Shown here in pieces: positions 461 to 12,826 of a stretch of DNA of 23,461 bases; the first letter of the stretch is position 1, and each line of letters starts with the position of its first letter. This stretch comes from a virus, in the IMG/VR virus record IMGVR_UViG_3300025769_000866, positions 1 through 23,461 of that record, one strand, 5' to 3'. A model generated the notes under the pieces. That model had not been told where the DNA came from. It saw only the letters and a program-made list of their open reading frames with translations, and ran no database searches. The translations under genes were made by a program, and so were the position numbers.

Positions 461-1453
461 TTGAGCATAACTAAAATTAGTACAGGAATTATTGGCACTA
501 CTGGTGCTTCAGATGGTGACGTGCTTACATTTGTAAGTGCGAATGGTTCTGTTGAATTTAAAGCAGCCACTGGAGGTTCAGGTAGTGCTGATTTAGTTGA
601 GTCAAATTTAAGCTCTTATGCTTCTTACGCTAACTCAACCTTTGCTCTTGATACAAGTCTCAATACTGTACAAGATAACGTAGCTACCAACGCTTCATCT
701 ATCACAGCGTTAAACGCTGAAGTAGATCAACTAGGAAGCTATGCTAACACTACTTTTGCTCTTGATACAAGTCTCAATACTGTACAAGATAACGTAGCTA
801 CCAACGCTTCATCTATCACAGCGTTAAACGCTGAAGTAGATCAACTAGGAAGCTATGCTAACACTACTTTTGCTCTTGATACAAGTCTCAATACTGTACA
901 AGATAACGTAGCTACCAACGCTTCATCTATCACAGCGTTAGATACTGAACTAGCTACCTTTGCTTCTTACGCTAATTCTACCTTTGCTTTAGACACAGAT
1001 CTAAATATAGTATCTTCTAACGTAGATTCGGTAATTTCTGGATTGACAGGAGCAAATAATTCTGTTAATCTAGTACTTAGTAATTTAGATAGTTTTGCTT
1101 CTTATGCTAACTCAACATTTGCTAGCGGTAGTATTAATGACGTCCAAAATAACTTAGACTCTTATGCAACTTATGCAAATGCTAACTTCTTAACTACTGC
1201 TGCAGCTAATGTAGGAAATGATAATTATGCTATCGATGCTAGTACTAATACCTTTACTTTAGCACAGTCGGTGTCTAACGTAAATAATATACTTTTAATG
1301 ATAAACGGATTGATTCAATCTCCAGATACTTATACAGTTAATGACACTACACTAACTGTTTCTAATGTAGCACCACTACCTGCAGGAATTAACGTTGATG
1401 TTAGATATCTACAGTTTGTATTCCCTGGAACTATAGATGGCGGAGGCGTCTAA
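461..1453 (+). CDS. Fibre-like repeat protein 1
   Basis: This 330-residue protein starts at TTG 461, behind AGGAGA at 448-453. The rare start is supported because the 17 residues up to GAS then align without gaps to the starts of the next two paralogues. Domains in order: a short conserved head with motif GASDGD (about 15-20); a run of 38-residue repeats containing VQDNVATNASSITAL (about 55-200), two of them identical at DNA level; and a C-terminal beta module (about 250-325) with motifs NTFTLAQSVS, GLIQSP and VRYLQF. No catalytic motif is visible. Repetitive Asn/Thr/Ser-rich proteins beside phage structural genes are usually trimeric tail fibres or fibre accessories, and this is the likely role. 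The exact position on the virion cannot be told. Confidence 0.75.
   Translation: MSITKISTGIIGTTGASDGDVLTFVSANGSVEFKAATGGSGSADLVESNLSSYASYANSTFALDTSLNTVQDNVATNASSITALNAEVDQLGSYANTTFALDTSLNTVQDNVATNASSITALNAEVDQLGSYANTTFALDTSLNTVQDNVATNASSITALDTELATFASYANSTFALDTDLNIVSSNVDSVISGLTGANNSVNLVLSNLDSFASYANSTFASGSINDVQNNLDSYATYANANFLTTAAANVGNDNYAIDASTNTFTLAQSVSNVNNILLMINGLIQSPDTYTVNDTTLTVSNVAPLPAGINVDVRYLQFVFPGTIDGGGV
641..939 (+). repeat. 114-bp tandem repeats in fibre gene 1
   Basis: Two full copies (641-754, 755-868) and a third partial copy (869-939) follow each other with a 114-base period and read as identical. Each encodes 38 residues in frame. Near-perfect DNA identity, rather than only protein similarity, points to recent expansion or gene conversion. 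Diverged units of the same protein motif occur in the following two genes. Confidence 0.9.
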
Positions 1454-1455
1454 TA

Positions 1456-2484
1456 ATGGCAATAGATAAACTAAATCCAAAACTTATAGAAACTATTGGA
1501 GCTTCTGATGGTGATGCTTTAGTATATGTTTCTGCCAATGGGCACTTAGAGTTTGGGTCTGTTGCAGTAGATACTAGTGCGTTATCAGCGTCAATTGACA
1601 CTGTACAAGACAACGTAGCAACTAACGCATCTTCTATTACAGCATTAAACTCTGAAGTAGATCAACTAGGAAGTTATGCTAATTCAACTTTTGCATCTAC
1701 TACTTACGTAGACTCAGAAGTAGCAGGTCTGGTAGACAGCGCTCCCGCAACTCTTGATACTCTTAACGAGTTAGCAGCGGCTTTAGGTAATGATGCTAAT
1801 CTCTCAGTTACACTTACTAACCAGATTAACTCTATATCAAGTAATACCGATGCTGTTAACGCAGAACTAGATGCTTTTGGTTCTTATGCTAATACAACGT
1901 TTGCTACAGATAATAATCTCAACACGGTACAAGATAATGTAGCAACTAACGCGTCTTCTATTACAGCGCTAAACGCTGAAGTAGACCAATTAGGAAGTTA
2001 CGCTAACAGCACTTTTGCTACAGATACTAATCTCAACACGGTACAAGACAATGTAGCTACCAACGCATCTTCTATAACAGCTAATAAAAGTATTTCAGAT
2101 ACTTTCGGTACTTATGCTAATTCAACTTTCGCTAGTGGAAATGTAAACGCTGTTCAAAGTAATGTGACTGCTGTTGGAAATGAGTTAGGTGCTTTTGGTA
2201 CTTATGCAAATGCTAATTTTTTAACTACTGCTGCTGCTAACGTAGCTAGTGATAACTATGCTATTGATGCTAGTACTAATACCTTTACTTTAGCACAGTC
2301 AGTGTCTAACGTAAATAATATATTCGTAATTTTAGATGGATTAATTCAATCTCCTGATACATATACAGTTAGTGATACTACTCTAACTATTTCTAATGTA
2401 GCACCGCTGCCATTAGGAATTAATGTAGACGTTAGGTACTTACAATTCGTTTTCCCAGGAACTATAGATGGTGGGGGCGTCTAA
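1456..2484 (+). CDS. Fibre-like repeat protein 2
   Basis: This 342-residue paralogue of the preceding gene begins two bases after its stop. Its ribosome binding site GGAGG (1442-1446) lies inside the previous coding end. It has the same order of parts: a conserved head (MAIDKLNPKL, then GASDGDALVYVSANG), 38-residue repeats, and the C-terminal beta module (NTFTLAQSVS, GLIQSPDTY, DVRYLQF). Around residues 80-115 there is a different segment, DSAPATLDTLNELAAALG, which is a motif commonly seen in phage tail fibres; this supports the fibre assignment. The gene is probably co-transcribed and translationally coupled with its neighbours. Confidence 0.78.
   Translation: MAIDKLNPKLIETIGASDGDALVYVSANGHLEFGSVAVDTSALSASIDTVQDNVATNASSITALNSEVDQLGSYANSTFASTTYVDSEVAGLVDSAPATLDTLNELAAALGNDANLSVTLTNQINSISSNTDAVNAELDAFGSYANTTFATDNNLNTVQDNVATNASSITALNAEVDQLGSYANSTFATDTNLNTVQDNVATNASSITANKSISDTFGTYANSTFASGNVNAVQSNVTAVGNELGAFGTYANANFLTTAAANVASDNYAIDASTNTFTLAQSVSNVNNIFVILDGLIQSPDTYTVSDTTLTISNVAPLPLGINVDVRYLQFVFPGTIDGGGV
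1900..2080 (+). repeat. 114-bp period repeats in fibre gene 2
   Basis: Two repeat units beginning at 1900 and 2014 are 114 bases apart and encode the same VQDNVATNASSIT motif as gene 1, with scattered synonymous changes. A more diverged unit lies near 1595-1690. The period matches gene 1 exactly, but the DNA is less uniform. Confidence 0.8.
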
Positions 2485-2486
2485 TA

Positions 2487-3563
2487 ATGGCAATAGATAA
2501 ACTAAACCCAAAATTATTAAAAACTGACGGAGCATCAGACGGAGATGCTTTAGTATATGTTTCTGCAAACTCTCAAATAGAGTTTGGGTCTGTTGCAGTC
2601 GATACTAGTTCGTTATCAGCGTCAATTGATACCGTACAAGACAATGTAGCTACCAACGCTACTACTATTACAACTAATAAAAGTATTTCAGATCAGTTTG
2701 GTAGCTATGCTAATTCAACCTTTGCTACTGATACTAATCTCAATGTAGTACAAGATAACGTAGCTACTAACGCTACCACTATCACTACTAATAAAAGTAT
2801 TTTAGATACTTTCGGTTCTTACGCTAATACAACCTTTGCTACTGATACTAATCTCAATGTAGTACAAGATAACGTAGCTACTAACGCTACCACTATCACT
2901 ACTAATAAAAGTATTTTAGATACTTTCGGTACATATGCAAACGCAACTTTTAGTACGGGTAGTGGAGGAGTAAAAGTTGAAAATGCTGCTGGAGTTATTG
3001 ATGGAGCAATTGCTAATATTGTCTTTGGATCAGGATTAGCTGCAGTACCTACAGGAAGTGCTAATACATTAACAGTTAGTGCTACAAGTGTTACATATGC
3101 TTATTCTTATTCTTCTCAAGTTATAGTCGCTTCAGGATCAGCTAATACTTTTACAATGTCTAGAAGTGTGTCTAATGCAACAAATATGTTTGTAGCAATT
3201 GATGGATTATTACAAACACCTGAAGATGATTATTTTGTTAGTGGTTCTACACTGACTATAGCAAACGTTTCTCCTATAGTTGCAAACACAGAAATTGAAG
3301 CTCGTTATGTTTTAACATCAACTTCTACCTCTAATCTTATAAACGATGTATATACTGCTTCAGGGTCTGCTAATACCTTTACTCTAACTCAAACTCCTGT
3401 TTCTAGTAGTTCTATAATGGTAGTAGTTGGAGGAATTCTTCAGTCTCCTGGTGCTCCTGCCAACAACTACTCAGTTTCAAGTACCACACTTACTCTTAAT
3501 AATACCGCACCTATTGCTAACAATACTGTGGTCTCTGTACGTCACCTACCGGCTGTTGGATAA
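2487..3563 (+). CDS. Fibre-like repeat protein 3 with duplicated C-terminal module
   Basis: This 358-residue third paralogue starts two bases after the previous stop, with G-rich Shine-Dalgarno sequence in the end of gene 2. The head (MAIDKLNPKLLKTDGASDGD) is nearly the same as in gene 2. Repeats of 38 residues with NVATNATTITTNKSI follow. The C-terminal half differs: after a junction segment (about 150-205) it carries two copies of the beta module, one with NTFTMSRSVS and GLLQTP, the other with NTFTLTQ and GILQSP, each ending in an ARYVL or VRHL strand. The likely role is a tail fibre or fibre adaptor. The gene ends the fibre transcript, and no clear terminator follows. Confidence 0.78.
   Translation: MAIDKLNPKLLKTDGASDGDALVYVSANSQIEFGSVAVDTSSLSASIDTVQDNVATNATTITTNKSISDQFGSYANSTFATDTNLNVVQDNVATNATTITTNKSILDTFGSYANTTFATDTNLNVVQDNVATNATTITTNKSILDTFGTYANATFSTGSGGVKVENAAGVIDGAIANIVFGSGLAAVPTGSANTLTVSATSVTYAYSYSSQVIVASGSANTFTMSRSVSNATNMFVAIDGLLQTPEDDYFVSGSTLTIANVSPIVANTEIEARYVLTSTSTSNLINDVYTASGSANTFTLTQTPVSSSSIMVVVGGILQSPGAPANNYSVSSTTLTLNNTAPIANNTVVSVRHLPAVG
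2721..2930 (+). repeat. 114-bp tandem repeats in fibre gene 3
   Basis: A unit beginning at 2721 is repeated from 2835 with almost no base changes up to about 2930. The encoded motif is NVATNATTITTNKSI, which differs from the gene 1 and 2 version, so the homogenisation seems to have taken place within this gene. Confidence 0.85.
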
Positions 3564-3576
3564 ATTATAATTCTTC

Positions 3577-3605
3577 TTGACTCCTTAAAAAATTTAGTAT
3601 ATAAT
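3577..3605 (+). promoter_or_regulatory. Strong sigma70-like promoter for the oxygenase cassette
   Basis: TTGACT (3577-3582), a 17-base spacer and a perfect TATAAT (3600-3605) lie in the 83-base gap between the fibre genes and the first oxygenase. Initiation near 3612 gives a leader of about 35 bases containing the purine-rich ribosome binding site GAGGGAG just before ATG 3647. It is the closest match to the bacterial consensus in the window. Confidence 0.75.
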
Positions 3606-3646
3606 TACTTATATATCATAAATAGAAGAGGGAGAAAAAACTAATT

Positions 3647-4417
3647 ATGAATTCAATACCAGAAATGTTTAATAATCAAAAATATATTGTATTTAACGAA
3701 GTAATCAGTCATGAGATGGCAAGTCTTATGACTGATTATTTATTTGTCAAAAGAGATGCAGGACTATTAGTACCTCCTGTATCTTTAGGAGGGGATGATT
3801 CACAATGTCCTTTGTCTTGGTCAATTTATGGAGATCCTTTATTTGATACCCTACTAGCAAGACTTGCCCCTCAATTAAGCAATCTAATAGGAGTAAACCT
3901 TATTCCAGCTTATACTTATTCTAGAATTTATCAAACAGGCGAAGAGCTAAAGTATCACAAAGATAGGCCTTCATGTGAAATTTCAGGTACTTTAACTCTT
4001 GGAAGAAAACAAGGAGAACCGATTTGGCCTATATATGTAGGTAAAGATGAAAATGATAAAGTAGGTAAACAGATTGATCTTGATATAGGAGAAATGTTAT
4101 TATATAGGGGTTGTGATATTCCTCATTGGAGACCTGTTTATAAAGGAGAGTGGCAAACTCAAGTATTTGTACATTATGTAGACGCGGATGGTCCGTATGC
4201 AGAAGAGTGTAAATTTGATGGTAGACCTACGTTAGGCATCTCAAAAACTCAACAAGCTGCTACTAATCAGCAGCAAAATCAAAACTTTCAACAGGTTAAC
4301 CATACTCAGCAAAAATTACAAAAACCTTGGTTAAAAACTCAAGAAGAATCTATGATAAGTTCTAGACCTTCAGGTCGTCCTCTTCCTCAAAACTTTGAAT
4401 TTAAGGTAGGTGAATAA
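3647..4417 (+). CDS. 2OG-Fe(II) oxygenase 1
   Basis: This 256-residue protein has the Fe(II)-binding triad of the 2-oxoglutarate-dependent dioxygenase fold. H104 and D106 form the HxD motif (LKYHKDRP), and H160 is the distal histidine in GCDIPHWRPV. A strand after it, VFVHYV (173-178), fits the double-stranded beta helix. Such enzymes hydroxylate a protein, nucleic acid or small molecule using O2 and 2-oxoglutarate. The substrate here is unknown. The C-terminal tail (about 200-232) is Gln-rich and looks disordered. The gene is first behind its own promoter, and its stop overlaps the next start by one base (TAATG), so the three oxygenases are probably made together. Confidence 0.82.
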   Translation: MNSIPEMFNNQKYIVFNEVISHEMASLMTDYLFVKRDAGLLVPPVSLGGDDSQCPLSWSIYGDPLFDTLLARLAPQLSNLIGVNLIPAYTYSRIYQTGEELKYHKDRPSCEISGTLTLGRKQGEPIWPIYVGKDENDKVGKQIDLDIGEMLLYRGCDIPHWRPVYKGEWQTQVFVHYVDADGPYAEECKFDGRPTLGISKTQQAATNQQQNQNFQQVNHTQQKLQKPWLKTQEESMISSRPSGRPLPQNFEFKVGE

Positions 4418-5031
4418 TGGCAAAATTTATGGCTCCAAGACAAAAACCTAGAACTCCGGGTTTTGTTGCTCATACAGCAGAACACTCAAAAAGAGAATTA
4501 TACTTTACACCTGACGAATGTGATTGGGTAATTAATTACGGTAATCAAGAGTATCCTCAATTTGCTTCAGTCGGAGAAAATGGAGGTGAAATTCGTAGAG
4601 AAATTCGTGATGTATATGTAAGAAATATATTCTTAAACGAAAAAACTAATGGTCTATTTGAAAAAATGATGTTTATCGCTGATGTTACAAATCAACATCA
4701 TTTTGATTTTGAAATAGCAGGAATCATGCACGGACTTCAATTACTTGAGTATACTAGTAATGAAACTAAACAACATTATGGGTGGCACATAGATGTAGGA
4801 GGCGGGAGTTCTTATGGTAGAAAAATTTCTATGATTGTACAACTTTCTGATCCCGCAGACTATGACGGAGGAGAGCTTCAGGTAGATGAAGGATCAGAAG
4901 TTGTAATGCCAAAAGAAAGAGGAAGTGTAATTTTATTTCCAAGCTATATGCGACATAGAGTAACTCCTGTTACTAGAGGCACACGCTGGTCTTTAGTTAT
5001 TTGGGTGCAAGGGTATACACACTTTAGATAA
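4417..5031 (+). CDS. 2OG-Fe(II) oxygenase 2, prolyl-4-hydroxylase/PKHD-like
   Basis: This 204-residue protein has a textbook facial triad. H124 and D126 lie in YGWHIDVG, H180 lies in FPSYMRHRVTPV, and R190 in GTRWSLVIWV would bind the 2-oxoglutarate carboxylate. The segment DYDGGELQV (148-156) is typical of the PKHD/PiuC-like hydroxylases. Start and stop both overlap neighbouring oxygenase genes by one base. The enzyme should be cytosolic, with no signal or membrane segment. Substrate is not evident. Phage relatives have been proposed to act on proteins or nucleotides, so a modification of virion, host or DNA is possible, without sequence evidence for a choice. Confidence 0.88.
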   Translation: MAKFMAPRQKPRTPGFVAHTAEHSKRELYFTPDECDWVINYGNQEYPQFASVGENGGEIRREIRDVYVRNIFLNEKTNGLFEKMMFIADVTNQHHFDFEIAGIMHGLQLLEYTSNETKQHYGWHIDVGGGSSYGRKISMIVQLSDPADYDGGELQVDEGSEVVMPKERGSVILFPSYMRHRVTPVTRGTRWSLVIWVQGYTHFR

Positions 5032-5597
5032 TGAATCATTTAGATTTTAAAGAAGAAATTTTATCTGTTCCAGTATGGGGGTTTAATATACCTGATAGTA
5101 GCTCTTTTAATGAAGAGCTACTTAATTTTGTTTACTGGTTACGAGATAGCACAGAAGGAAAAAATAGATCTAATTTTCTAGGTTGGCAAAGTCATGATTA
5201 TATTTATCAAGATTATGGAGATTTTTTGAAACCATTAATCCAACCTCTTTTAGATATGAGTAATAATATTGTGAAAGATTTTAGTGAAAGAATTAATAAA
5301 GAAGTTTTTATTGAATCTATGTGGGCAAATATTAATTCTCAATACTCTTATAATGCTCATCATGTACATAGCGGTACTTTAAGCGGTGTATATTGGGTAT
5401 CCACACCAGAAAATTCTGGAAAATTAGTTTTAGTAAATCCCGCAGGTAGATCAGAGACCAGCCGGATTAGAATAAAAAATTATGGTTTGACACCTGAATC
5501 AGGTTCATGTATACTATTTCCATCATGGTTAGAACACTATGTTGAACCAAATAAAAATACTCAAGACAGAGTATCGATCAGTTTTAATATAGAATGA
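5031..5597 (+). CDS. 2OG-Fe(II) oxygenase 3, TIGR02466-like
   Basis: This 188-residue protein belongs, by pattern, to the putative 2OG-Fe(II) oxygenase family with an HxH rather than HxD metal motif. NAHHVHSGTLSGVYWV places H111 and H113 in the metal position. FPSWLEHYVEP gives the distal H169, and R180 in DRVSISFN is the likely 2-oxoglutarate contact. The sequence is unlike the two upstream oxygenases, so this is a third family and not a tandem copy. It is translationally coupled to the second oxygenase by a TAATG overlap. Substrate unknown. Confidence 0.82.
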   Translation: MNHLDFKEEILSVPVWGFNIPDSSSFNEELLNFVYWLRDSTEGKNRSNFLGWQSHDYIYQDYGDFLKPLIQPLLDMSNNIVKDFSERINKEVFIESMWANINSQYSYNAHHVHSGTLSGVYWVSTPENSGKLVLVNPAGRSETSRIRIKNYGLTPESGSCILFPSWLEHYVEPNKNTQDRVSISFNIE

Positions 5598-5606
5598 GGG
5601 GAAAAT

Positions 5607-6506
5607 ATGTCTGATTTAACGACAACAAACAAAGAAAATAAAGATTTAGTAGATGTTGCTGAACAAGCAAAGGGTAAATCTATTGCCGAAGTTTTTCAAA
5701 CTTCTAATTTAGCAGAGGTTAAAAGTTTTGGAGGATTAACTTTAGCTGAAAACGCTAAAAAAGTAGATTTAGCTATTTCTAATGTAGCAGAAACAGAAAG
5801 AATTTGGAATAGGTCTCATTCTCAATGGACTTGGAGGCATATTAATTTAAGTTATGCTGCTCCTATGAAAAATATTAGACAAATTAGTGCTGAAATGACA
5901 AGAAAAAGAGAAGCATTAGAAGAGGCTAAGTGGAACTATATGAAGAATGAGATTAAATTAAAACAAAAAGAAGATAGACTAGCCAAAGAGAAAGACTCTT
6001 TAAAAGCACAATTACTTGAGATAGATATAGCTCAGTTAAAAAGTGGAATGGCTAATGGAATGAAATATGTTGAAGGAGCAATGAAAGATGTATTGACTCT
6101 TTCTAACCTTTACGATGACTTAAAGGAAAAATATAGCGATTATAATGAAGAAGATTTTGAAAAAGAAGAAGCAAGGTCTCATTTAAAGAGAAGTTTAGTA
6201 CAGTGTTTAAGAGATGTTAGGCAAAGTGGTAGAATCACTAAAGGAGAACAAGAATATTTAGAACAGATAGGTGTTAATCCTGGAAAAATTACTTTAGATA
6301 TGCTTGCCTTTTTAGACTATGAACAAAAAATAGATGATTATACTGTAAGACCTATGTATGAATTTTTAGAAGATATGTGTGTAAAACTTCTTGATCAATT
6401 AAAAGTAGATGATGTCCGTATGCAGCTTCAAGGACTACGAAATCATCATGACGATGATGCTATATTTCTCCCTAAACAGTCTGAAAAGAACTCAGAGGAG
6501 AATTAA
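5607..6506 (+). CDS. Unknown alpha-helical protein upstream of terminase
   Basis: This 299-residue protein starts at ATG 5607 with GAGGGGA just upstream. I do not recognise the family. The N-terminal 50 residues look flexible. Residues about 90-145 are highly charged and probably form a coiled coil, including KREALEEAKWNYMKNEIKLK. Further helices follow (about 170-205), and the acidic C-terminus includes HHDDDAIF. There is no membrane segment or enzyme motif. Its position before TerL, with no obvious small terminase elsewhere in the window, makes a DNA-recognition or packaging role conceivable, but no helix-turn-helix is clear. Confidence 0.75.
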   Translation: MSDLTTTNKENKDLVDVAEQAKGKSIAEVFQTSNLAEVKSFGGLTLAENAKKVDLAISNVAETERIWNRSHSQWTWRHINLSYAAPMKNIRQISAEMTRKREALEEAKWNYMKNEIKLKQKEDRLAKEKDSLKAQLLEIDIAQLKSGMANGMKYVEGAMKDVLTLSNLYDDLKEKYSDYNEEDFEKEEARSHLKRSLVQCLRDVRQSGRITKGEQEYLEQIGVNPGKITLDMLAFLDYEQKIDDYTVRPMYEFLEDMCVKLLDQLKVDDVRMQLQGLRNHHDDDAIFLPKQSEKNSEEN

Positions 6507-6508
6507 CA

Positions 6509-6856
6509 ATGATTGTAGAATATAAATTAGAAAAAGTAAGAGCCCGTTCTGATGCAAAGAAAACCCCAATTTGGATTGATAACGGTGGGCATTGGTATAA
6601 TTCAATTAATAATTCTTACGTTGGTTATATTAGAGACGACGTAGAATATTATATACCTTCTACTTTGAAAACACTTACTAGAGATTCGTTTATCTCTCGC
6701 ATGCAAGCTATTCATGCTAGTCATCCCCTATATAAGACACCCCCACTTGCAGACGACAGTAGCCCGGATGTAGAGGCAGAACTTGTTGCTTACACAGATG
6801 AAGAGCTTGTAACAGCGATGGGTTCTTGGTGGGATACATTTACTGCCAGTCAATAA
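6509..6856 (+). CDS. Hypothetical protein, 115 residues
   Basis: The gene starts two bases after the preceding stop and is led by GGAG within that gene's end. The protein is soluble and aromatic-rich, with WIDNGGHWYNSINNSYVGYI (22-41) near the N-terminus and an acidic C-terminal third ending in GSWWDTFTASQ. I do not recognise the family. It lies in the same transcript as the unknown helical protein and the terminase. A small-terminase role is only one possibility, given the position; nothing in the sequence demonstrates it. Confidence 0.68.
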   Translation: MIVEYKLEKVRARSDAKKTPIWIDNGGHWYNSINNSYVGYIRDDVEYYIPSTLKTLTRDSFISRMQAIHASHPLYKTPPLADDSSPDVEAELVAYTDEELVTAMGSWWDTFTASQ

Positions 6857-10075: not shown

Positions 10076-12826
10076 ATGGAAAAAACATTTTATCTGAACA
10101 GTGCTTTTGAAACTAAAAGAATTAAAAACTCTAATGGTTTAAAAATTGCTGGCTATGCTAATACTACGGATAAAGACAGGGTCGGAGACGTAGTAACTGC
10201 TCAAGCATGGGCAAAAGGCGTTGCAAATTATAGAAAAAACCCTGTTTTATTATATCAACATAAACATGATCAACCTATTGGAAAAGTAGATAAGGTCACT
10301 GTTGATAAAAAAGGAATTTATGTAGATGCTATGGTCAGTGATGCTGCTGAAAAATTACACGGAGTACAAACTTTAATTAAAGATGGTGCTTTAAAAAGTT
10401 TTTCAGTAGGTTTTCGCGTTAAAGACGGTAAGTATGATGCAAATAACGATTCTATGACTATTACAGAAGTAGAGTTGTTAGAAATTAGCGTGGTTAGTGT
10501 ACCTGCTAATCAAAACTCACTATTTAGTGTTAGAAAAAGCTTTGAAGGTGATTCTGAGTATGAAGAATTTGTAAAAAGCTTTAAAAACGGAGAAAGCGAG
10601 GAAGAAATGGACACAGAAGATAATACTATTGAAGAAAAGTCTGAAGCCATTTCCGAAACAGACATTGTTGAATCTGTAGAAACTGCAGAAGCGATTGAAG
10701 TTGAAGAAAAAGCTACAAATGATTCTTCAAATGAAGATCTCTCTGAAGAAATTACAGTAGAACTAGCAGAAGAAACTAAAGATATTTTGGAAGAAACATC
10801 TTTAGAGCTTTCTGAAGAAGAATTAGAAGAAATTAATCCTATGGATCCAATTCCTTTTGTAAATCTTTTATCTGCTGAAACCTCTTCATTGAGTACTGAT
10901 ACCTTTATAAAATACGAAGGAAAAAGATTTAAAATTACTAAGATTGCTACTGCCGAATCTCCAAATTTTAAATTTTTAGAGGTTGACGTAAATGGAAAAA
11001 CAGTGGATAATATAGATACAGTTCCGGCAGAGGAAATGGCTGTAGTAAATACTTGGGATATCGGTACAAAATATGATATTCATGTAATTAATACTAATAC
11101 ACCAAGATTATCCGATTCTGTAAGAGAAGAAATTAAAGAAGCATATAAAAATACAAATAATGCAACTGAACAATATTTATTCTCTTTAAAAGACGAAGAA
11201 TCTATTACTAACAGTTTAGACTTACAAGAGAAATTAAACAAACTTTTAAATCTAAAAGCAAACGGTGAAGATTGGTCAGATTCTGATTATGTCTTTGCAA
11301 ACTACTTAAATAATATTATTCAAGAATTGAATAAGATGAACCCAAATGATCATAGAGATCTAGCCCTAAAATTACATGGGCAAATGATTGTCGAAACAAA
11401 GGAGAAAGACGATATGGCTACTCAAACTGCAGGCGATGTACTAACTATTGATACTGGTGCAGCCGAAAATAATCAAGCAGAAGCTAAAGCCGCCACTATA
11501 GAGGTACAAGAGCCTAGAGTGGCCGAATTAGTTCAAAAGACTGGTGAAGCTATCATGGAACAAGCAGACGTTCGTGATAGACAAGAACTTGTTGAAGAAA
11601 AATCAGCATATACACCTCGTGAAAACGAAGCTGTTGCTGAACTTAAAGCTCAAATGGAGAAGTACAGAGACGAAATTGCTGCTCTTCAAAATAGCAAAAT
11701 GGTGTGGCAAGAGTCACAGCGTAAAGAAAACCCATATTCTGCTAAAGAAATGGCTAACGCTGTTATGCTTGGATACGCTCTTAACAGACGTGATGTAATG
11801 GACACTAGACTTGGTAATAAAATGAAAGCTGTTGTTTCATCTGGTGAGAACTTTATTTCTAACTTCTCAACTAACATCTATGAAGAAATGCAGCAGCAAT
11901 TAGTTGTTGCTCCAATGTTCAACCGTGTACAAGTTGATGCAAAAACTTTCCGTATCCCAGTCGCTGACGAAGATGACGGTTTCTCAAGTAGTAATGATGG
12001 TGTAGCTCAATTTGAGTCTGGAACATATGCTACCGGTATTGGTGATAGCAGCAACGTTCCTGATTCATATCAGAACGTGATTAAATCAATTGATTTAACA
12101 CCACATAAGTTTATGACTTCAACCCATCTTGCTAAGGATGAAGAAGAAGATACAATTCTTCCTCTTATTGATTTCTTACGTGCTTCGACAACTCGTCGTA
12201 TTGCCCGTGCTATCGATAAATCAATCCTTCGTGGTACTGGTGCTAGCTCAGGCTTTACTGCTAACGCTGCCGCAATTACAGCAGGTACTGGTTTTGCTTC
12301 TGTAATTACTGGTATTACTAAGCTTGCTAATGCTGCTGCGTTACAACAACAGACTGGTTCTGCAACTGCTAAAGCTGCTCCTGCTGAAATCGCAGATGCA
12401 CGTGCAACTCTTGGTAAGTATGGTCTTCAGTTAGGTGATCAATTAGTATATATCACTGGTGTTGAAGGTTATAACTCACTTGTAGCTGAGTCAGACTTCC
12501 GTACTGTAGATAAGTTCGGCCCTAATGCCACTTATTTAACAGGTGCTCTTGGAGCTATTTATGGAATTCCAGTTGTTATCTCTGAATTTATGGATAACGT
12601 AGGAACTTCATGGAACACTCTTGGAACTCTTGTTTACAAGCCGGGATTTGTTATCGGTGAGAGACGTGGAATGGAAATCGAAAGTGAGTACGAACCACGC
12701 CAGCAGGTAACTGCAATGTATATGTCAACACGCTTTGACTTTAAAGCCTTGACTACTGCAGGAACTGCTTCAAGCCCAACTTTGAGCTCATCTTACTCAT
12801 TCGCTTGTAATATCGCAGCTGGCTAA
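10076..12826 (+). CDS. Prohead protease-major capsid protein fusion
   Basis: A single 916-residue frame covers genes that are separate in HK97. Residues 1-155 are an HK97-type (U35/S78) prohead protease: YQHKHDQPIGK gives the catalytic His (H64 most likely), KSFSVGF the Ser (S110), and ELLEISVVSVPANQNS the E136 region. Residues about 160-255 are very acidic, like a scaffold. Residues about 260-345 look like a small beta domain of unknown kind, followed by helices to 445. Residues 447-916 are the major capsid protein: a helical delta-like segment (to about 555), then the HK97 fold with FRIPVADEDD and ending in the P-domain strands. A strong ribosome binding site and in-frame ATG at 11414 could make a separate 470-residue capsid precursor. 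Fusion of protease and capsid is known in some other phages. Confidence 0.9.
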   Translation: MEKTFYLNSAFETKRIKNSNGLKIAGYANTTDKDRVGDVVTAQAWAKGVANYRKNPVLLYQHKHDQPIGKVDKVTVDKKGIYVDAMVSDAAEKLHGVQTLIKDGALKSFSVGFRVKDGKYDANNDSMTITEVELLEISVVSVPANQNSLFSVRKSFEGDSEYEEFVKSFKNGESEEEMDTEDNTIEEKSEAISETDIVESVETAEAIEVEEKATNDSSNEDLSEEITVELAEETKDILEETSLELSEEELEEINPMDPIPFVNLLSAETSSLSTDTFIKYEGKRFKITKIATAESPNFKFLEVDVNGKTVDNIDTVPAEEMAVVNTWDIGTKYDIHVINTNTPRLSDSVREEIKEAYKNTNNATEQYLFSLKDEESITNSLDLQEKLNKLLNLKANGEDWSDSDYVFANYLNNIIQELNKMNPNDHRDLALKLHGQMIVETKEKDDMATQTAGDVLTIDTGAAENNQAEAKAATIEVQEPRVAELVQKTGEAIMEQADVRDRQELVEEKSAYTPRENEAVAELKAQMEKYRDEIAALQNSKMVWQESQRKENPYSAKEMANAVMLGYALNRRDVMDTRLGNKMKAVVSSGENFISNFSTNIYEEMQQQLVVAPMFNRVQVDAKTFRIPVADEDDGFSSSNDGVAQFESGTYATGIGDSSNVPDSYQNVIKSIDLTPHKFMTSTHLAKDEEEDTILPLIDFLRASTTRRIARAIDKSILRGTGASSGFTANAAAITAGTGFASVITGITKLANAAALQQQTGSATAKAAPAEIADARATLGKYGLQLGDQLVYITGVEGYNSLVAESDFRTVDKFGPNATYLTGALGAIYGIPVVISEFMDNVGTSWNTLGTLVYKPGFVIGERRGMEIESEYEPRQQVTAMYMSTRFDFKALTTAGTASSPTLSSSYSFACNIAAG
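11398..11416 (+). promoter_or_regulatory. Internal ribosome binding site and start for capsid protein
   Basis: AAAGGAG (11398-11404) precedes an in-frame ATG (11414-11416) with a nine-base spacer. It is as good as any gene start in the window. The protein then opens with MATQTAGDV, a normal capsid-type N-terminus, and from here to the gene end gives 470 residues, a usual length for an HK97 capsid with its delta domain. It resembles the nested C/Nu3 start of phage lambda. Use of this start is inferred. Confidence 0.6.

What the first reader, a model, noticed from the sequence alone, without database searches (positions are those of the whole stretch)
3564..5597. Promoter-led cassette of three different 2OG-Fe(II) oxygenases
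Seen in sequence: three oxygenases with intact metal triads (HxD-H, HxD-H and HxH-H), from three different families, joined by one-base TAATG overlaps and preceded by the window's best promoter. Established knowledge: single 2OG oxygenases are common in marine phages, with mostly unknown substrates. A coupled set of three suggests successive or cooperative modifications. Their place beside Asn/Thr-rich fibres and upstream of packaging genes makes fibre residues or phage DNA bases reasonable candidates. This is inference only.
Basis: partly seen in the sequence, partly recalled or inferred. Interest (0 to 1): 0.6.

Follow-up and report, generated by a model that had tools for sequence, protein, structure and literature searches.

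The report
Phage tail-fibre oxygenase gene cassette
A marine virus of bacteria carries three adjacent genes for iron-dependent oxygen-inserting enzymes right beside its tail-fibre genes; the same set recurs in many unrelated marine phages, probably to add chemical groups to virion proteins, and one of the three families has been mislabelled in databases and papers as the haem enzyme ferrochelatase.

Summary
In detail: three intact ORFs (3647-4417, 4417-5031, 5031-5597) coupled by one-base TAATG overlaps, behind a conserved sigma-70-like promoter, between fibre and packaging genes. oxB is PF13640, oxC is PF13759/TIGR02466. oxA has no Pfam family and hits PHROG 2954, 'ferrochelatase'. That label is wrong: its AlphaFold model matches prolyl-4-hydroxylases, 0 of 51 relatives match the Pfam ferrochelatase family, and PHROG 2954 rings in none of eight control bacteria with a true ferrochelatase. 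The published 'ferrochelatase + 2OG-oxygenase' partnership of pelagiphages is therefore a multi-oxygenase cassette like this one.
The cassette is not local: 75 of 78 non-redundant oxA loci have another 2OG oxygenase within 3 kb, 73 an oxB (15 fused to oxA), 49 both partners. Many lie among fibre, neck or other structural genes, in several phage types. An unknown helical protein (gD, 5607-6506) and often a sulfotransferase accompany them. Some cellular oxA homologues sit in lasso-peptide or NHLP-leader clusters, a few with an oxB-like oxygenase and a sulfotransferase. Best reading: late-expressed peptide hydroxylases decorating virion, probably fibre, proteins (about 0.5). DNA bases are a weaker rival. 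No substrate is shown.

The parts
3577..3605 (+). sigma-70-like promoter TTGACT-17-TATAAT in the 83-base gap before oxA
   Evidence: 11/12, tied with two other sites; hexamers and spacing conserved in L008, L009, L011, L012, L015
3647..4417 (+). oxA: double-stranded beta-helix 2OG-Fe(II) oxygenase-like protein (PHROG 2954, mislabelled 'ferrochelatase')
4244..4414 (+). C-terminal tail of oxA: Gln/Asn-rich linker ending in a conserved KPW...PLPxxFEFKVGE segment in close relatives; absent from many other oxA proteins; possible docking peptide
   Evidence: alignment; lower pLDDT
4417..5031 (+). oxB: PF13640 prolyl-4-hydroxylase/PKHD-like 2OG oxygenase (HxD...H, Arg at H+10)
5031..5597 (+). oxC: PF13759/TIGR02466 2OG oxygenase (HxH...H, Arg at H+11)
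   Evidence: 86.6 bits, cut-off 62.5
5607..6506 (+). gD: helical protein of unknown function (PHROG 1409), module partner
   Evidence: 14 of 17 well-flanked gD loci have an oxygenase within 5 kb; presence matches the trio in the TerL clade; AlphaFold model has no significant PDB match
6509..6856 (+). gE: small protein of unknown function, present and absent together with gD
461..3563 (+). three tandem fibre-like genes (461-1453, 1456-2484, 2487-3563), candidate substrates; repeats contain almost no Lys or Pro

Best explanation
The cassette is a late-expressed set of peptide side-chain oxygenases acting on proteins of the phage's own virion, most likely the fibres encoded just upstream. One promoter drives translationally coupled oxA, oxB and oxC (inferred from sequence). 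oxA and oxB probably work as a pair on one polypeptide (they are fused in many phages); oxC modifies another residue. In related phages a sulfotransferase would then act on the new hydroxyl groups. gD would be an assembly or scaffolding partner. Shown: gene structure, folds or families, metal motifs, purifying selection, conserved co-occurrence, fibre-locus position. Inferred: activity, substrate, late timing, order of steps, role of gD. As the fibre repeats hold almost no Pro or Lys, repeat-region targets would have to be Asn, Asp, Thr or similar; Pro targets could lie only in the C-terminal domains or in other virion proteins.
For: 75/78 non-redundant oxA loci have another 2OG oxygenase within 3 kb, 73 an oxB, 49 both oxB and oxC, 15 A-B fusions. 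Flanks are repeatedly fibre-like or virion structural genes: a family matching PHROG 3287 (virion structural protein) is the next gene in 37 loci, a fibre-like repeat family lies within four genes in 38 (that family is itself labelled 'unknown function'); in T4-like loci gD and A-B fusions sit among fibre genes and head-tail connector genes. gD, gE and the trio are present or absent together in 30 TerL-clade loci (10 with all, 20 without gD/gE). The oxA model matches prolyl-4-hydroxylases, best the P. putida enzyme solved with EF-Tu, a protein substrate, E 4e-10; the oxB profile matches PKHD hydroxylases and prolyl 4-hydroxylases. Cellular oxA homologues lie in peptide-maturation clusters: lasso B2/PqqD/cyclase (L276), lasso-type cyclase + HprK-related kinase + sulfotransferase + oxB-like oxygenase (L284, L286), NHLP leader (L272). 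Sulfotransferase-like genes in 41 of 162 oxA loci (redundant set, not pruned) and in 0 of 45 TerL relatives without the trio.
Against: No substrate or activity is shown. Related phages with similar Asn-rich or collagen-like fibre repeats lack any cassette on their contigs (L041, L049). A 173-kb relative has several more PF13759 oxygenases outside fibre loci, one beside what look like recombination nuclease genes. oxA lacks the usual 2OG-binding Arg. Three of 17 well-flanked gD loci have no oxygenase nearby. Fibre adjacency was not tested against a genome-wide null. Most cellular oxA loci were not in peptide clusters within 6 kb, and some sit beside PKS or thioesterase genes, so small molecules are possible.
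Confidence: 0.5

Rival explanations
1. The oxygenases modify sugars, lipids or a small metabolite (surface glycans or a natural-product-like molecule) rather than protein.
For: A PF13759-like gene of the 173-kb relative sits in a sugar-nucleotide/glycosyltransferase-like cluster; glycosyltransferases neighbour some cassettes; a few cellular oxA homologues sit beside a PKS or a thioesterase.
Against: The cassette itself has no sugar genes beside it in the window or close relatives; folds are nearest to protein hydroxylases.
Confidence: 0.15
2. They act on phage DNA bases (hydroxylation, possibly followed by further groups).
For: ParB-like genes lie within or next to 7 oxA cassettes; one PF13759-like gene of the relative sits between recombination-type genes; 2OG oxygenases modify bases in other phages (own knowledge).
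Against: None of the three matches TET/JBP in a Pfam scan, relatives have no PF12851 hit (where no control rang); structural-gene location; base-hypermodification genes form a separate partner set in HTVC023P-type phages (PMC9599517).
Confidence: 0.12
3. Host-directed metabolic genes: consumption of 2-oxoglutarate to reset nitrogen metabolism, or iron/haem metabolism as published for the 'ferrochelatase' pair.
For: Literature proposals in or cited by PMC9602691, PMC9599517 and PMC13184970.
Against: The ferrochelatase half is refuted; three divergent enzymes with separately conserved active sites, coupled and fused, are not needed merely to consume 2OG (inference).
Confidence: 0.1
4. They hydroxylate a host protein (e.g. 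a translation factor or ribosomal protein, as P. putida P4H does with EF-Tu).
For: Nearest structural match of oxA is that enzyme.
Against: Fold similarity at 14% identity does not predict substrate; position is in the virion structural region.
Confidence: 0.1

Closest known systems
Co-located 2OG-Fe(II) oxygenases with 'ferrochelatase' partners in HTVC023P-type pelagiphages (Wittmers et al. 2022, PMC9599517)
   Same: The same oxA family (HTVC023P 'putative ferrochelatase' aligns with oxA) beside further 2OG oxygenases
   Different: Here oxA is recognised as an oxygenase itself; this phage has a T5-like terminase, order A-B-C, and the partner gene gD
Prolyl 4-hydroxylases / PHD2 (PDB 4iw3, 4j25, PHD2 entries)
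   Same: Predicted double-stranded beta-helix fold and HxD...H metal site of oxA; sequence-profile match for oxB
   Different: About 14% identity in the oxA structural match; oxA has no conserved Arg/Lys at distal His +9 to +12; target unknown
TIGR02466/PF13759 family (solved: 2rg4, 3bvc, uncharacterised)
   Same: oxC passes the NCBIfam cut-off (86.6 against 62.5 bits) and its profile matches 3bvc/2rg4
   Different: The solved members are labelled uncharacterised, so no substrate can be transferred
CanE, 2OG lasso-peptide Asp beta-hydroxylase (review PMC8498205)
   Same: 2OG enzyme acting on a ribosomal peptide; cellular oxA relatives occur in lasso-type clusters
   Different: Homology between CanE and oxA was not tested; no lasso genes are in the phage window
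PBCV-1 viral prolyl 4-hydroxylase (Eriksson 1999, cited in PMC9301287)
   Same: Precedent for a virus-encoded hydroxylase acting on viral protein sequences
   Different: Eukaryotic algal virus, single enzyme, Pro targets; the fibre repeats here lack Pro

Membership tests
2OG-Fe(II) oxygenase superfamily (oxA) | Double-stranded beta-helix fold | tested here: met
   AlphaFold model pLDDT 85.6; the 50 listed PDB matches are oxygenases of this fold
2OG-Fe(II) oxygenase superfamily (oxA) | HxD...H metal triad | tested here: met
   H104, D106, H160 invariant in 51 sequences
2OG-Fe(II) oxygenase superfamily (oxA) | Basic residue that binds the 2OG C5-carboxylate (commonly about 9-12 after the distal His) | tested here: inconclusive
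   No conserved Arg/Lys at the common position; consensus HWREPFxGNxCGQVFLHYN. Some superfamily members place it elsewhere (own knowledge), so 2OG use stays open
2OG-Fe(II) oxygenase superfamily (oxA) | 2OG-dependent hydroxylation activity | not testable with these tools
   needs enzymology
Ferrochelatase (label of PHROG 2954 on oxA) | Sequence match to Pfam ferrochelatase PF00762 | tested here: not met
   0 of 51 oxA proteins; 0 of 6 phage records while 8 of 14 control genomes ring; PHROG 2954 rings in no control
PF13640 / P4H-PKHD type oxygenase (oxB) | Profile match above curated cut-off | tested here: met
   65.1 bits, cut-off 27
TIGR02466 / PF13759 (oxC) | Profile match above curated cut-off | tested here: met
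   86.6 against 62.5 bits; 68.6 against 27 bits
TET/JBP DNA-base oxygenase | Match to PF12851 | tested here: not met
   no hit for oxA, oxB or oxC at E <= 0.1; related genomes also none, though no control rang
Marine-phage multi-oxygenase cassette (oxA + oxB, often oxC) | oxA with an oxB-type neighbour or fusion | tested here: met
   window trio; 73 of 78 loci elsewhere

The most novel reading that the evidence does not exclude
Marine phages carry a RiPP-like virion-maturation module: paired 2OG peptide oxygenases (oxA-oxB, often oxC) plus gD and, in many phages, a sulfotransferase, installing hydroxyl and sulfate groups on fibre proteins to tune receptor binding or resist proteases, related to tailoring enzymes of bacterial lasso and NHLP-leader peptide clusters.
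Probability: 0.3. Interest if true: 0.85.

Novelty: new variant of a known kind. Interest (0 to 1): 0.6.

Why it matters
2OG oxygenases are common, unexplained genes of marine phages and are usually read as auxiliary metabolism. The data point instead to a recurrent, multi-enzyme module embedded in virion structural loci, and give a directly testable target. They also show that the phage 'ferrochelatase' family, used in published claims of pelagiphage haem/iron auxiliary metabolism and of seasonal gene enrichment, is another oxygenase family.

Tried and rejected
L018 looked like transfer of fibres plus oxA into a T4-like phage, but it is 99.3% identical to L011 up to a break inside a conserved oxA motif: probable assembly chimera or very recent recombination, not used. 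Consensus promoter counts are not above shuffles, so only conservation is used. The gD structure search gave no PDB match below E 0.3. The link of gD with a 225-230-aa protein beside podovirus-like cassettes is only coiled-coil level (hhalign probability 63%) and is left open. tblastn of gD and gE found nothing in the phage collection. Sequence-profile search of oxA against PDB found nothing meaningful, so its fold rests on the model. A held-library search joining phage, sulfotransferase, tail fiber, oxygenase and marine found no paper.

Full report
Observation. The three ORFs, their one-base overlaps and their metal motifs are as described. oxB belongs to PF13640 and oxC to PF13759/TIGR02466; oxA matches no Pfam or NCBIfam model. 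The upstream gap carries TTGACT-17-TATAAT; the scan alone is uninformative, but both hexamers and the spacing survive in relatives that differ at many other positions. oxA has its own ribosome-binding-like GGGAG; oxB and oxC start inside the preceding stop, so translational coupling is likely (inference). All three genes are under purifying selection. The window is a 23-kb virus record, probably a fragment; its large terminase is about 41% identical to those of phages such as Erwinia phage KEY and many Vibrio phages, which I take to be T5-like (own knowledge).

oxA is not a ferrochelatase. PHROG 2954 calls it 'ferrochelatase', and cultured pelagiphage homologues carry that name. The AlphaFold model of oxA (mean pLDDT 85.6) matches prolyl-4-hydroxylases and PHD2, best E 4e-10. 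None of 51 relatives matches Pfam ferrochelatase. In four cultured pelagiphages and two relatives of this phage the Pfam ferrochelatase profile finds nothing, while it rings in 8 of 14 control genomes; PHROG 2954 does the reverse. PHROG 3531, also 'ferrochelatase', is matched by oxA in its first half and oxB in its second, i.e. it looks like the A-B fusion. Papers that use this label are PMC9599517 (co-located 2OG oxygenases and ferrochelatases) and PMC11561400 (seasonal enrichment of phrog61 and phrog2954). A caveat: oxA has an invariant HxD...H but no conserved Arg/Lys at distal His +9 to +12, so 2OG as co-substrate is inferred.

The cassette recurs. Together with the loci from other searches, reduced at 90% identity, there are 78 oxA loci: 75 have another oxygenase within 3 kb, 73 an oxB, 49 oxB and oxC, and 15 an A-B fusion. 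The sample is biased to relatives most similar to the query. Orders differ: A-B-C here; C'-B-C-A in a large podovirus-like group; A-B fusions in loci that include T4-like ones. Pelagiphages HTVC008M, HTVC023P, HTVC033P and Mosig carry runs of oxygenase genes in the same place: five in a row in HTVC008M, three in HTVC023P.

Neighbours. In close relatives the order fibre-A-B-C-gD-gE-gF-TerL is fixed. Among 30 distinct TerL-clade loci with enough upstream sequence, 10 have oxygenases of this type and all 10 have gD and gE; 16 have none of them; 4 have a different oxygenase in the same stretch (PF13640 in L033) and neither gD nor gE. These loci are phylogenetically related, so the counts are not independent. 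Selecting by gD instead, 14 of 17 well-flanked loci have an oxygenase within 5 kb, often among fibre and head-tail connector genes. Around oxA cassettes, a virion structural family (PHROG 3287) is the next gene in 37 loci and a fibre-like repeat family lies within four genes in 38. Sulfotransferases (PF13469) neighbour many cassettes; a tryptophan-halogenase-like gene, an FkbM methyltransferase, a collagen-like protein and glycosyltransferases occur near a few.

Cellular relatives. The genome scan found 44 oxA relatives; several look like phage contigs in bins, as they carry the whole cassette. Of the cellular ones, L276 lies with a lasso B2 protein, PqqD-family chaperone and cyclase; L284 and L286 lie with a lasso-type cyclase, an HprK-related kinase, a sulfotransferase and an oxB-like oxygenase; L283 with a cyclase and an oxB-like gene; L272 follows an NHLP leader-like peptide. 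Others show no such cluster within 6 kb, and L275 and L280 sit beside a PKS and a thioesterase. This is suggestive, not a test, of peptide substrates.

Mechanism. The best-supported reading is hydroxylation of the phage's own virion proteins, fibres first; late expression is inferred from the position among structural genes. Against a simple version: fibre repeats hold almost no Lys or Pro, similar repeats occur in phages without the cassette on their contigs, and the 173-kb relative has more oxygenases elsewhere. Glycans or metabolites, DNA bases, host metabolism and host proteins remain rivals, with the weights given in the rival list.

Novelty. Co-located phage 2OG oxygenases are known. New here, as far as the held library shows, are the reclassification of oxA, the A-B fusion and co-occurrence counts, the gD partner, the fibre-locus setting across phage types, and the overlap with peptide-tailoring clusters. 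The library holds only open-licence papers, so earlier reports cannot be excluded.

Noticed in passing
L163:6408-15132 (173-kb relative, record IMGVR_UViG_3300021958_000023; not in the window): Four radical-SAM-like genes (best NCBIfam matches are peptide maturases PapB and DynA, well below cut-offs) with a TIGR02466-like oxygenase and a 200-aa protein ending VDTCHASCHSNCHGSRGRR: looks like a phage-borne radical-SAM protein-modification cluster.
   Followed up: partly
L033:3213-3800 and the same slot in L043, L045, L064, L070: Phages with a related terminase carry a different 2OG oxygenase (PF13640 confirmed for L033 and L043) between fibre and gF/TerL, without gD or gE.
   Followed up: partly
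PHROG 274 and 2297 ('DNA endonuclease V'), e.g. L139:11344-11844: oxB and oxC score against PHROG 274 and oxB against 2297, and L139's member has HxD and a distal His, so this label may also hide 2OG oxygenases.
   Followed up: no
L018:8108-8761: Chimeric oxA: 99.3% identical to L011 up to a conserved motif, then a different oxA, inside a T4-like contig; assembly chimera or recent recombination.
   Followed up: yes
L049:2489-9100, L186:3-2948, L091:1759-2592: Collagen-like Gly-X-Y proteins with little Pro by eye; L186 and L091 lie near oxygenase fusions, L049 has no oxygenase of these families on its contig.
   Followed up: no
window:8425-8838: HNH-like ORF between TerL and portal, overlapping the TerL end, conserved in most TerL relatives.
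   Followed up: no
window:12869-12895: Strong terminator-like hairpin (11 pairs) just downstream of the 916-aa ORF at 10076-12826.
   Followed up: no
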